A DNA stretch of 64,000 nucleotides. Source: Vulcanimicrobiota bacterium. Lineage in GTDB: Bacteria > Vulcanimicrobiota > Xenobia > Xenobiales > JADMJV01. The notes beneath the pieces were generated by a model, which saw only the letters and a list, made by a program, of their open reading frames with translations, was not told the origin of the DNA and searched no databases. Every line of letters starts with the position of its first letter. The first letter of the stretch is position 1. Location of the stretch: contig JAHBVR010000013.1 in the NCBI GenBank assembly GCA_019637395.1, positions 124,001 through 188,000 on the forward strand. Reading direction: 5' to 3'. Of the stretch, positions 1 through 4,007 are shown piece by piece. Made by a program: the position numbers and the translations under genes.

Positions 1-563
1 CCCGCCCCCAGTGAGAGAGCCGCCTGAATCTTCTCCAGCAGATTTAGAGATTGGGGATGGAAGGTCATGCGAATGCTGGCACAATCGCTCCACCGGATCA
101 GGTTGCGCAGGTTGCGACGCAGATGCTCCCACGAGGGCGCGCCGGAAACCTTCGGTCGAAAGCGATGGCTTTCTTCATCTCCATCCAGGCTGATGAGCAA
201 CTGCACCTTCCCCTCCTGAAGGAAGCGTCGCACCGTATCGCCAGCCAGCGTGCCGTTGGTGGTCACGCCGATCACCACACGGTCGCCGCCCGGCCGCCCC
301 CTCAAGTAGTGAAGCAGCCGCAACAGCAGCTCACTGCGCAACAGGGGTTCCCCGCCAAAGAAATTCAGGCCGAGCGGCTCGCGTCCAGAAACCTCCGGCT
401 GCAAGCAGTAGTCCACCACCTTCTTGGCGGTATCCCAGGCCATGTGGCGGGGCTGCTTATTAACGAAGCAGTAACTGCAGCGTAAATTGCATTCCTCGGT
501 CACATAGATCATAAAAGTGGTCACTGGAACAAACGGTCGGTTCTCGCGAACCGGCAAAGACAT
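1..563 (-). CDS. Radical SAM enzyme (SPASM/anSME-like maturase), C-terminus cut by window edge
   Basis: Reading from ATG at 563 to the window edge gives 187 residues with no stop. The N-terminus carries the radical SAM cluster motif ECNLRCSYCF, with C25, C29 and C32 in CxxxCxxC spacing, followed by NFFGGEPLL (GGEP at 69-72), which contacts the SAM methionine. The FMIYVTEECN lead-in and the TTNGT and SLDGD strands are typical of peptide- and protein-modifying maturases with a C-terminal SPASM domain, but that part lies outside the window. A GGAGGA ribosome site sits about 12 bases before the ATG. It is the last visible gene of a four-gene minus-strand operon, 19 bases after the NifU-like gene. 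Family assignment is strong; the substrate is unknown, and the repeat protein at the head of the operon is a natural candidate. Confidence 0.9.
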   Translation of the reverse strand, partial: MSLPVRENRPFVPVTTFMIYVTEECNLRCSYCFVNKQPRHMAWDTAKKVVDYCLQPEVSGREPLGLNFFGGEPLLRSELLLRLLHYLRGRPGGDRVVIGVTTNGTLAGDTVRRFLQEGKVQLLISLDGDEESHRFRPKVSGAPSWEHLRRNLRNLIRWSDCASIRMTFHPQSLNLLEKIQAALSLGA

Positions 564-582
564 AAGCACAGCCAGATCCTCC

Positions 583-927
583 TTAATTGAGCGCCAGGCA
601 GACGGCCTTGACGGCCATCCAGGCATAAAAGCAACGTTGTGGCGGCAACCCGCCCAGGTCCCGAACGATCTGCTCGACCGTCAGCTCCTGGTCCGCCCTG
701 CGCCCCACCAATCGCTCGTAGAGGTAGCCTCCACAGGCGATGGCGGGCACACAACGGGGACAAGAGAACGCCAGGGCTTTCACGATGCCGTGTGCGTCGA
801 TTTCCAGTTGTAGTTGAAAGTAGTGGCCCTGTTCCGCGCTTCCCACCCTACTTTGATGAGTCGGGGCGTCCAGCGAACCGAAGCCCCGAGCATTGTCGAA
901 GTAGCGCCGGGTTTGCGGGGAGAACAT
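583..927 (-). CDS. NifU/IscU N-terminal-like Fe-S scaffold protein with altered ligands
   Basis: A 114-residue protein that follows the NifU_N/IscU pattern along its length: NARGFGSLD (cf. NPRNVGSLD), a strand segment FQLQLEID, SCPRCVPAIA (cf. GCGSAIAS) and LPPQRCFYAW (cf. LPPVKLHCSM). C59 and C99 match the second and third cluster cysteines of IscU. The first ligand cysteine and its neighbouring aspartate (ACGDxM) appear replaced, reading AEQGHY with Q33 and H35. Extra cysteines sit at 56, 65 and 110. In the family this protein assembles or carries Fe-S clusters; here it may serve the adjacent radical SAM enzyme. It lies 5 bases after the 114-residue gene upstream. Fold assignment is moderate to good; whether it still holds a cluster is uncertain. 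Confidence 0.72.
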   Translation of the reverse strand: MFSPQTRRYFDNARGFGSLDAPTHQSRVGSAEQGHYFQLQLEIDAHGIVKALAFSCPRCVPAIACGGYLYERLVGRRADQELTVEQIVRDLGGLPPQRCFYAWMAVKAVCLALN

Positions 928-932
928 GGCGC

Positions 933-1277
933 TTAGACGGCTACCGGGTTAACGAATTGAGGGGAGCCCATGAGCAGCCGGTAAGCCTGGGCACGCAAGT
1001 TATCACCTTCGGCCGGGCCTGCGGGGACCTCGAAATGCTCCAGCATCTCCCGGTCGGCGCCGGTCAGCTCCAGCGAAAACCCACTCAGCGCCGGCTCCTG
1101 GGTTTTGTGTCCATCCCAACGACCGTCCGAGTCCAGGATTTTCGCGGCCGCTCCGGCCGAAAACCAGGTCCGAACCGTCACCATGGTGCGGTTGCCTTCC
1201 ACCGCGATGCTTTCGATTCTCGAGTAGGCTTGCGGGGCGGGCACCCCGCAAAAAGTTGCTTCCGATTGAATTGCCAT
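933..1277 (-). CDS. Small hypothetical protein next to tail-fibre-like gene
   Basis: A 114-residue protein starting MAIQSEATFC with a strong AGGAGG ribosome site whose bases overlap the region just after the upstream stop. It has alternating hydrophobic strands (SRIESIAVEG, TMVTVRTWFS), two cysteine-poor halves and no membrane segment or signal peptide. Small beta-rich proteins of this size are common directly after tail-fibre genes in phages, but I do not recognise the family. The spacing (9 bases after the repeat protein, 5 before the NifU-like gene) places it firmly inside the operon. It could be a chaperone or attachment partner for the repeat protein, or a carrier/recognition protein for the radical SAM enzyme. 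Function is unassigned. Confidence 0.75.
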   Translation of the reverse strand: MAIQSEATFCGVPAPQAYSRIESIAVEGNRTMVTVRTWFSAGAAAKILDSDGRWDGHKTQEPALSGFSLELTGADREMLEHFEVPAGPAEGDNLRAQAYRLLMGSPQFVNPVAV

Positions 1278-1286
1278 TTTATCCTC

Positions 1287-3080
1287 CTAAAATTCCACAT
1301 CTCTAACGACCCAGCCGATTGTGCGGGCCGCCGAACTTCCCAGGACCATTTGCAGGTTGGAGCCACTCACGTTCAGACCCACCTCACCGGAGGCCGGACT
1401 GCCCGAGAGGACCCAGGCCGCCGACCCCGACTCAATCACCGGTGTGCCGGCGCCCATAAAGCGGACGATGGCCCAGTCGTCGTTGGAGTCGAAGAACTCG
1501 ATCCGCCCCCGGCGATTGCTCAAAGAGAGAATCGTGGTGGTGGAAGAGTCGGCATAGCTCTGTCCCTTACTCGTGACCGAGGCGGACTGTTGCGTGCCGG
1601 TTTTGCGGAAGGTATCTCCGATGTTGACCTGGCCATTCTCGGTGGCCGAAGCCAGGCTGACGGAGTCGCCAATTGCGATGCAATGGGAACCGGTCGTCAG
1701 ATTGGTGGCGCAAGAGGAGCCCAGGATGGTGTTGTAGTTGCCACTGGTGATGGCGGAGCCGGCGTTGTAGCCCACAGCCACGCAACCGGCTCCGGTCGCG
1801 GCATACAGGGCCGAGTGGCCCATGGAGGTGTGGTAGGATCCCGTCGAGTTCTGGCGGAGAGACATCGTCCCGAAGGCGCTGTTATAACCGCCGGTGGTAT
1901 TCGTATAGGCCGATTCCCGCCCCAAAAAGGAGTTACCGGCCCCCGAAGTGGTGTTGTAGCCCGCCGCATAGCCGGCGGCCGTGTTGTAGCCAGCCGTGCA
2001 GGCCTGAAGGGCAAAATAGCCCAGGGCCGTCACGCCGTCGTTGCTGGAGCCGCTATATCCGGCCGAGGCTCCCAGGCAGGTTTTGGCGCTGCCCGTGGTG
2101 TTTTGCCGGCCGGCCAGAGCGCCGCACATCGTATTGCTGCTCCCCGAGGTGTTGCTGTAGCCGGCCTGGTTGCCTAGAAACAGGCCCGAAGTGCCGCTGC
2201 TGTTCTGGTAGCCGGCCGCATAGCCCAGGGCGCAATTGTAGTTGGCCGTGTTGGCATAGAGCGCCCCGTAGCCGACCGCCGTCGAGCCCGTTCCCGTGGT
2301 CGAGCTTAAGCCCGCCTGGTAGCCGATGGCCACCCGGTAACTGCCGGTGGTATTTGCATAAGCCGCCTGGCTGCCCAGCGCGGTGTTGCCTGTGCAAGAG
2401 GTGGCCCCGTAGAGAGCCCTGTAGCCAACTCCCGTGTTCTGGGAGCCGCCGCCGAGGCCCCCGTGGAACACATTGTCGCCCATGCCGATATTGTTTCCGC
2501 TGTTGTCTTGAGCCGTGCCCCCCTGGGCCAGCGGCACCGTGCCGGACAGATCAGAAGCAGCCGGAGCGGCGTTGACGAAACTCGAGCCATTGTAGCGCAC
2601 CACCTGGCCCGGGGAAGGCGAGCTGATAGCGACATCGGTCAGGTCGTTGAGAGCCGCCACCGAGCTGCCGCCCACGCCCCCCAACATCTCGAAGCGACCG
2701 CCACTGGCGTCGTTGTAGACGGCGGCCACCATCTGGTTGGCCGCGATGTCCCCCGGCGAAAGTGCGCTTCCGCCAGCCCTTACCAGGGATTTGGCGGTCA
2801 GAGCGCCTCCGGGACCGACCACCTGCAGGGTGGAAGCCCCCGTATTGGCGTTGGCCGCCTTAAAAACCACCAACATGCCCTTTTTATAGGCGGCGAATTG
2901 ATTCTGGTTGTCAGGAGAACCGTCGAAGTTCACCTGGTAGGCGTCGGCCGCACCGACGTCATCGCGGTAGAAAGCCTGGCCGTCCTCCAGCTCGGCCAGA
3001 ATGGGGAAGAGTTGGGTAATGTGCTCGGCTTCGATCACATCGCCCGTATTGATTGTATTGTCTGATAATGGACTGGACAT
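1287..3080 (-). CDS. Phage tail-fibre-like / YadA-head-like repeat protein
   Basis: 597 residues starting MSSPLSDNTI, with ribosome site GGAAT before the ATG. The first 200 residues resemble the attachment region of phage tail-fibre proteins (FAAYKKGMLVVFKAANANTG, GTVPLAQGGTAQDNSG). Residues about 210-490 hold some 16 degenerate repeats of 16-23 residues with the core [A/V][I/L/V]GYxAGYxNTTG, the left-handed beta-roll pattern of YadA-type heads and many tail fibres. The C-terminal 100 residues (SLSNRRGRIEFFDSNDDW onward) look like a beta-rich tip. There is no signal peptide or YadA membrane anchor, so an exported autotransporter is unlikely; a phage or phage-derived particle, or an unknown surface assembly, fits better. 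Eight or more cysteines fall inside the repeats. First gene of the radical SAM operon. Confidence 0.75.
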   Translation of the reverse strand: MSSPLSDNTINTGDVIEAEHITQLFPILAELEDGQAFYRDDVGAADAYQVNFDGSPDNQNQFAAYKKGMLVVFKAANANTGASTLQVVGPGGALTAKSLVRAGGSALSPGDIAANQMVAAVYNDASGGRFEMLGGVGGSSVAALNDLTDVAISSPSPGQVVRYNGSSFVNAAPAASDLSGTVPLAQGGTAQDNSGNNIGMGDNVFHGGLGGGSQNTGVGYRALYGATSCTGNTALGSQAAYANTTGSYRVAIGYQAGLSSTTGTGSTAVGYGALYANTANYNCALGYAAGYQNSSGTSGLFLGNQAGYSNTSGSSNTMCGALAGRQNTTGSAKTCLGASAGYSGSSNDGVTALGYFALQACTAGYNTAAGYAAGYNTTSGAGNSFLGRESAYTNTTGGYNSAFGTMSLRQNSTGSYHTSMGHSALYAATGAGCVAVGYNAGSAITSGNYNTILGSSCATNLTTGSHCIAIGDSVSLASATENGQVNIGDTFRKTGTQQSASVTSKGQSYADSSTTTILSLSNRRGRIEFFDSNDDWAIVRFMGAGTPVIESGSAAWVLSGSPASGEVGLNVSGSNLQMVLGSSAARTIGWVVRDVEF

Positions 3081-3268: not shown

Positions 3269-3484
3269 CTAATCGGGCAGTTGTTCGAAGAGCAAGGTCA
3301 GCAGAGCGCGTAACTCATCCAGGTGAGTGCCCACGGTTTTGTCGCGGCGCTCCAAGGCTTTCAGCCGCCGCAATGCCTCGCTCTTCAGTCGGTTGGGCTC
3401 CTCCGAGGTCGGGGAGGCGCTTTCCGTTTCTTGCGTCCACGGGCGGCGCCGCCGCGGCCTCGGTGTCGGAGCCGAGGTCATCAT
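3269..3484 (-). CDS. Small hypothetical protein, helical C-terminus
   Basis: 71 codons starting MMTSAPTPRP after the ribosome-site-like GGGG stretch. The N-terminal half is basic and proline-rich, the C-terminal 40 residues (RLKSEALRRLKALERRD, then a leucine-rich end) are predicted helical. A second ATG four bases upstream opens another frame (MNDDLGSDTEAAAAPP) that shares the same ribosome site and looks more natural at its start. The original gene may therefore have used that start and later changed frame. It lies about 190 bases upstream of the tail-fibre-like gene on the same strand. No family recognised. Confidence 0.4.
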   Translation of the reverse strand: MMTSAPTPRPRRRRPWTQETESASPTSEEPNRLKSEALRRLKALERRDKTVGTHLDELRALLTLLFEQLPD

Positions 3485-3801: not shown

Positions 3802-4007
3802 TCAGGCTACTGGACGAGGCCTGTAAAGTTCTATTACCGAACCATTCAAGGCCGTTGCCAATCTCTTTACGGTGGAGGCATACGGCTTTACCCGCAGGCT
3901 GACACCGCTCGCTTCGGCCAACTCCGCTTGAGTCAGGTTCGCGTCGAGTCGATGCTTTGCTCAAACGCCATTTCTTGTTTCGGCTATTCTCGCAACCTCT
4001 TTCTCAT
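3802..4007 (-). pseudogene. Broken XRE-type helix-turn-helix regulator
   Basis: On the minus strand the frame ending at 3802 reads LTQAELAEASGVSLR followed directly by VKPYASTVKRLATALNGS and then IELYRPRPVA. This is the classic XRE/Cro repressor fold: first helices, a GVS turn, the P-Y-A-S-T-V-K-R-L-A-x-A-L-N helix and the VxEL end. The recognition-helix segment (normally RTIxRLExG) is missing between the two parts, and upstream the start MRKRLRE at 4007 is separated by stops. The gene is too short and interrupted to be functional. It may be the remains of a prophage or plasmid regulator. Confidence 0.55.

What the first reader, a model, noticed from the sequence alone, without database searches (positions are those of the whole stretch)
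1..3080. Radical SAM enzyme, NifU-like scaffold and tail-fibre-like repeat protein in one tight operon
Four minus-strand genes spaced 5-19 bases apart join a beta-roll repeat protein, a small phage-like protein, a NifU/IscU-like protein and a radical SAM/SPASM-type enzyme. Radical SAM maturases normally act on small peptides or on sulfatases; a dedicated Fe-S scaffold beside one that may act on a structural fibre is not an arrangement I know. The sequence shows order, spacing and motifs; the substrate relation is inferred. It may be a phage-derived particle whose fibre is modified after translation.
Basis: partly seen in the sequence, partly recalled or inferred. Interest (0 to 1): 0.8.

Follow-up and report, generated by a model that had tools for sequence, protein, structure and literature searches.

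The report
Rhs toxin operon with peptide-modifying enzyme
The four genes are the front half of a repeated gene cassette in uncultured Eremiobacterota that appears to make a large, swappable bacterial toxin of the Rhs type, together with a phage-derived fibre, a repurposed iron-sulphur-scaffold-like protein and a radical SAM enzyme that most likely modifies a small glycine-rich partner protein, not the fibre.

Summary
In detail: four tight minus-strand genes (gaps 9, 5 and 19 bases). The window cuts the operon. To the left the radical SAM/SPASM gene is complete, then come a 201-aa glycine-rich protein with three Cys and a ~2,200-aa RHS/YD protein. The cassette recurs in six loci: three Eremiobacterota genomes plus one doubtfully binned contig.

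Comparison separates the parts. The IscU/NifU-fold gene goes with RHS cassettes in general: six lack the radical SAM gene. The radical SAM gene always comes with the glycine-rich gene (6 of 6; both absent from seven other loci), and it serves three unrelated fibre types. So the fibre is an unlikely substrate and the glycine-rich protein the likely one. The NifU-like protein is not a dedicated Fe-S donor: it occurs without the enzyme and its window version has lost most canonical ligands.

Sister cassettes carry a one-helix protein, an M15 endolysin and an HTH gene upstream; RHS tips vary and an orphan tip lies nearby. No contractile sheath was found. Best reading: an Rhs polymorphic-toxin cassette with a radical-SAM-matured accessory protein, perhaps released by lysis. 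Substrate, chemistry and delivery are inferred, not shown.

The parts
1287..3080 (-). Fibre-like protein, 597 aa: phage-type N-terminal domain shared by all cassette fibres, 17-residue beta-roll-type repeats, unrelated C-terminus
933..1277 (-). Small 114-aa protein that accompanies the beta-roll fibre type (85% identical partner in G002:C430); probable fibre-specific partner or chaperone (inferred)
   Evidence: no family; structure prediction unusable, pLDDT 45
583..927 (-). IscU/NifU-fold protein, 114 aa; keeps IscU C63 only, new conserved C56, C65, C99
   Evidence: PF01592; model pLDDT 93.9; TM 0.88 to IscU; ligand loss
1..563 (-). 5' part of the radical SAM/SPASM gene (389 aa from M22); continues outside the window to L009:9394 (C5:123394)
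   Evidence: ribosome site before M22. Outside the window the operon continues with the Gly-rich gene L009:8786-9391 (C5:122786-123391) and the RHS gene L009:2149-8757 (C5:116149-122757)
3269..3484 (-). 71-aa ORF, conserved upstream of the fibre in sister cassettes
3823..3951 (-). Remnant of the HTH regulator found at the head of sister cassettes; frame interrupted by stops. The one-helix protein and endolysin genes of sister cassettes are missing here

Best explanation
The four genes are the 5' half of a modular Rhs polymorphic-toxin cassette of Eremiobacterota. Pooled plan: HTH regulator, one-helix protein (putative holin), M15 endolysin, fibre, fibre-specific small protein, IscU-fold protein, rSAM/SPASM enzyme, Gly-rich Cys protein, RHS/YD shell protein with a variable C-terminal tip, then small genes that may give immunity. 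Proposed working: the RHS shell folds in the cytoplasm around its tip; the rSAM/SPASM enzyme cross-links or otherwise modifies the Gly-rich protein made next to the RHS protein; the IscU-fold protein serves RHS or fibre assembly instead of feeding clusters to the enzyme; the fibre binds the target; release is by holin/endolysin lysis, as in type 10 secretion. Shown by sequence: gene content, order, co-occurrence, variable tips, enzyme motifs, loss of scaffold ligands. Inferred: substrate, chemistry, role of the IscU-fold protein, immunity, delivery.
For: Same gene order in six loci with gaps of -4 to 40 bases. rSAM and Gly-rich genes always together (6/6) and both missing from seven related loci. 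The Gly-rich block is the most conserved part of that protein: 87% against 66% and 40% in the flanks of one pair, 74% against 59% and 43% in another. rSAM triad and seven SPASM Cys invariant; nearest models PapB, nif11, QhpD, SCIFF maturases, nearest structure 5wgg at 1.4e-50. RHS: PF05593, DUF6531, Rhs-associated core, nearest structures T6SS Rhs toxins; tips differ after the last DPxG, and an orphan RHS end with another tip lies downstream. M15 endolysin next to a one-helix protein.
Against: No experiment. The Gly-rich proteins are low in complexity and align poorly between subgroups, so their homology rests on position and composition. The holin has no family match, the window copy lacks holin and endolysin, and spanins were not sought. 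No toxin family was found in the two tips scanned. RHS proteins of cassettes with and without the rSAM gene differ, so the RHS protein as substrate is not excluded.
Confidence: 0.58

Rival explanations
1. The rSAM/SPASM enzyme modifies the RHS protein itself (shell or tip), and the Gly-rich protein is an adaptor or recognition partner.
For: All six rSAM cassettes have an RHS gene two genes downstream, and these RHS N-termini are mutually related at 33-74%, while those of G005 cassettes without the enzyme are only about 24% similar.
Against: RHS cassettes without the enzyme are common; the best models for the enzyme are maturases of small precursors.
Confidence: 0.17
2. One reading: the enzyme modifies the fibre of a phage-derived particle, with the NifU-like protein as its cluster donor.
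For: Fibre, NifU-like and rSAM genes are adjacent.
Against: Three unrelated fibre types beside one enzyme family, and the window's fibre type also occurs without it; the NifU-like gene occurs without the enzyme and the window type lacks C37, D39, H105 and C106; no sheath gene in the genome.
Confidence: 0.07
3. The Gly-rich protein is a fibre-tip-like or structural element (glycine-rich adhesins of phages are known) and not the substrate; the enzyme acts on something outside the operon.
For: Glycine makes up 18-35% of these proteins and more than a third of the central block; a Gly-rich C-terminal domain is also found in one fibre type.
Against: It is paired with the enzyme and not with the fibre type; Gly-rich and rSAM genes are 2-14 bases apart in all six loci; each protein has 3-4 Cys.
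Confidence: 0.12
4. The cassette is a decaying prophage or a chance pile-up of phage and host genes.
For: Fibre, endolysin and HTH genes in sister loci; insertion sequences nearby; broken HTH remnant in the window.
Against: Order kept across genera with tight spacing and purifying selection (rSAM amino-acid identity 0.81 with four-fold-site identity 0.47); the six enzymes are one group at 100/98; viral contigs hold only distant relatives of the enzyme and canonical IscU in unrelated settings.
Confidence: 0.05

Closest known systems
Rhs polymorphic toxins (T6SS-associated Rhs such as Tre23, Tse15, Tse5)
   Same: RHS repeats, Rhs-associated core ending in DPxG, variable C-terminal tips, orphan tip nearby
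   Different: No PAAR or VgrG neighbour seen in the loci read; instead fibre, IscU-fold, rSAM and Gly-rich genes, and endolysin in sister copies. Toxicity of the tips untested
rSAM/SPASM peptide and protein maturases (PapB, SCIFF maturase CteB, QhpD)
   Same: Radical SAM triad and seven SPASM cysteines; best model and structure matches
   Different: All curated models score far below cut-off (181 of 340 bits for PapB); the likely substrate is a 149-201-aa Gly-rich protein in a toxin operon
IscU/NifU Fe-S scaffolds
   Same: Fold (TM 0.88) and Pfam family
   Different: Window type keeps C63 only; C37, D39, H105 and C106 replaced; linked to RHS/fibre genes
Type 10 secretion (holin/endolysin/spanin), as for the Yersinia entomophaga toxin complex (PMC10847048)
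   Same: Small membrane protein and endolysin genes beside a giant YD-repeat protein in sister cassettes
   Different: Holin identity unproven, spanins not sought, genes missing from the window copy
Contractile tail-like systems (eCIS, tailocins)
   Same: Phage-type fibre with collar or collagen domains in sister cassettes
   Different: No contractile sheath in the genome, no other tail genes in the loci read

Membership tests
Radical SAM/SPASM enzyme | CxxxCxxC triad plus seven-Cys SPASM pattern | tested here: met
   All ten Cys invariant in six sequences; Pfam cut-off passed
PapB-type ranthipeptide maturase | Curated equivalog score of 340 bits (NF047865) | tested here: not met
   181 bits
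RiPP precursor/maturase pair | Dedicated small precursor gene strictly linked to the maturase | tested here: met
   Gly-rich gene 2-14 bases downstream in 6/6, absent from loci without the enzyme
RiPP precursor/maturase pair | Modification of the precursor by the enzyme | not testable with these tools
   Needs co-expression and mass spectrometry
IscU/NifU Fe-S scaffold | IscU fold | tested here: met
IscU/NifU Fe-S scaffold | Three cluster cysteines (C37, C63, C106) and D39 | tested here: not met
   Only C63 kept in the window type; the other cassette type lacks C106 only
Rhs polymorphic toxin | RHS/YD repeats and Rhs-associated core | tested here: met
Rhs polymorphic toxin | Variable C-terminal tip after the core, orphan tips nearby | tested here: met
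Rhs polymorphic toxin | Toxic tip neutralised by a downstream immunity protein | not testable with these tools
   Small downstream genes exist; function unknown
Type 10 secretion system | Holin, endolysin and spanin genes | tested here: inconclusive
   Endolysin clear; holin by size, one helix and position only; spanins not searched; window copy lacks them
Contractile phage-tail-like particle | Tail sheath gene (PF04984) | tested here: not met
   None in the genome

The most novel reading that the evidence does not exclude
A radical-SAM-modified glycine-rich protein is a working part of an Rhs toxin complex, and an IscU-fold protein with replaced cluster ligands has become a conserved assembly or loading factor of Rhs/fibre cassettes across a bacterial class. 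To my knowledge neither role has been described.
Probability: 0.33. Interest if true: 0.85.

Novelty: new variant of a known kind. Interest (0 to 1): 0.63.

Why it matters
Rhs toxins are best known from T6SS settings. A lineage that pairs Rhs proteins with phage fibres, an IscU-fold protein and sometimes a radical SAM maturase would show another way to build and deliver them, and would add a protein partner of a giant toxin to the targets of radical SAM/SPASM chemistry. It also shows that a NifU-like gene beside a radical SAM gene need not be its cluster donor.

Tried and rejected
Fibre as substrate: rejected on co-occurrence. NifU-like protein as dedicated donor: rejected. Loss of IscU C106 as a hallmark of the cassettes: rejected, because a conserved copy near an IscA-like gene also lacks it. 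Viral origin: the rSAM scan of viral contigs gave distant relatives only, 21-38% identity, the tree keeps the six cassette enzymes together at 100/98, and the viral NifU hits inspected are canonical IscU; the single phage record with a NifU match looks like a bacterial contig. Known defence system: only weak overlap with viperin models in the radical SAM core. Structure of the 114-aa protein: two sequences, pLDDT 45, discarded. Literature: no paper found that joins YD-repeat proteins with radical SAM, and nothing relevant.

Full report
What is there. The window is G000:C5:124001-188000 of a 7.66 Mb genome. Its genus-mate G002 holds a contig of the same length and match position as a record titled Candidatus Eremiobacterota, and G006 matches 'bacterium CPR1' in the same way. 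The four minus-strand genes are as described. The rSAM start used here is M22 at position 563, which has AAGGAGG upstream; the longer frame starts inside the NifU-like gene. Reading 10 kb to the left (L009) completes the rSAM gene and adds, 2 bases on, a 201-aa Gly-rich protein with 3 Cys and, 28 bases on, an RHS protein of about 2,200 aa. The reported genes are the front of a six-gene operon.

Sister cassettes. The same order, with gaps of -4 to 40 bases, is found at C32 (81% rSAM identity) and C22 (48%) of the same genome, at G002:C187, at G006:C697 (cut inside the NifU-like gene) and on a contig binned as Bryobacter, JALHNH010000089. That contig's glycosyltransferase, putative holin and fibre N-terminus are 86-88% identical to Eremiobacterota copies, so a binning error is likely. 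The six enzymes form one group with 100/98 support. No other of 149 genomes of the phylum has one at E 1e-70. Upstream genes in sister cassettes are an HTH regulator, a protein of about 104 aa with one hydrophobic segment, an M15 endolysin (PF08291; PHROG endolysin) and, with collar-type fibres, a glycosyltransferase. In the window copy only a broken HTH remnant and the 71-aa ORF remain.

Which part goes with which. Loci without the rSAM gene: G002:C430 (same beta-roll fibre type, the same 114-aa partner at 85%, NifU-like gene, then a 1,041+ aa protein without RHS match), G005:C372 and C70 (fibre, NifU-like, a peptide of about 79 aa, RHS), G000:C2 in the same genome (collar fibre, 116-aa partner, NifU-like, a short peptide, RHS, small gene, second RHS tip), and G011:C21, G013:C291 and C298 (NifU-like, structural protein, small protein, RHS). 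The RHS proteins of G000:C2, G011 and G013 were recognised by eye from their YD motifs, not by a family search. None of these seven has a Gly-rich gene of this kind between NifU-like gene and large gene. So the NifU-like gene goes with RHS/fibre cassettes, while rSAM and Gly-rich genes come and go together. Four of the six NifU_N genes over the Pfam cut-off in this genome lie in such cassettes. The C5 and C32 NifU-like genes agree at 92% of four-fold sites, against 47% in the rSAM and RHS genes and 68% in the fibre N-terminus, which suggests recombination at this gene and swapping of the modules around it (inferred).

The enzyme. It has the radical SAM triad and seven SPASM cysteines, all invariant. 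Nearest curated models are PapB, nif11, QhpD and SCIFF maturases, all well under their cut-offs; the nearest solved structure is 5wgg. Purifying selection is clear (amino-acid identity 0.81 with four-fold sites at 0.47). The Gly-rich proteins (149-201 aa, 3-4 Cys, a Gly-rich block of 50-60 residues) are most conserved in that block: 87% against 66% and 40% in one pair, 74% against 59% and 43% in another. Together with the strict pairing this makes them the most likely substrate. Thioether chemistry is an analogy, not a result.

The NifU-like protein. The model is confident (pLDDT 93.9) and matches IscU (TM 0.88). Of the IscU ligands C37, D39, C63, H105 and C106 only C63 remains in the window type, while C56, C65 and C99 are new and present in all six sequences of this type; the other cassette type lacks C106 only. 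A conserved copy near an IscA-like gene also lacks C106, so that loss is not special to the cassettes. A standard scaffold role is doubtful for the window type. A role in assembly of RHS or fibre is my proposal.

The RHS protein. RHS repeats, DUF6531 and the Rhs-associated core are clear, with Rhs toxins of T6SS as nearest structures. Tips after the last DPxG differ between cassettes, and an orphan RHS end with another tip lies downstream at C5:107487-108671. No contractile sheath is present in the genome. Lytic release by holin, endolysin and spanin is documented for another giant toxin complex (PMC10847048); here it is a proposal, weakened by the unproven holin and by the window copy lacking these genes.

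Verdict. Observation confirmed; interpretation partly supported. The most likely reading is a modular Rhs toxin cassette with a radical-SAM-matured Gly-rich accessory protein. The open-access papers searched hold no description of such a cassette; most subscription papers are not in that library.

Noticed in passing
L156:13487-14671 (C5:107487-108671): Orphan RHS C-terminal end, 61% identical to the cassette-1 core over 226 aa and then with a different tip, followed by a small ORF: looks like a displaced toxin-tip module.
   Followed up: partly
window:583-927 against L010:8569-8913: The NifU-like genes of cassettes C5 and C32 are 97% identical in DNA (92% at four-fold sites) while neighbouring genes are near saturation: local gene conversion or module exchange.
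   Followed up: partly
L212:521-883 (G000:C12:339520-339882): A conserved NifU-like gene near lepA and an IscA-like gene has KRHA in place of KxHC, so it lacks the IscU C106 cysteine.
   Followed up: partly
L030 (JALHNH010000089.1): Contig filed under a Bryobacter (Acidobacteriota) bin but carrying a cassette 86-88% identical in several genes to Eremiobacterota copies: probable binning error or recent transfer.
   Followed up: partly
L010:10476-11573 and L030:3575-4672: A GT2/TPR glycosyltransferase gene lies upstream of the collagen/collar-type fibre only; it may glycosylate that fibre.
   Followed up: no
L151:3752-6874 (G002:C430): A 1,041+ aa protein with no Pfam or PHROG match takes the place of the RHS gene after fibre, small partner and NifU-like gene.
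   Followed up: no
L210:7623-8598 (G000:C24 end): Putative holin and M15 endolysin genes at a contig end; possibly the missing head of the C22 cassette, whose contig starts inside a fibre gene.
   Followed up: no
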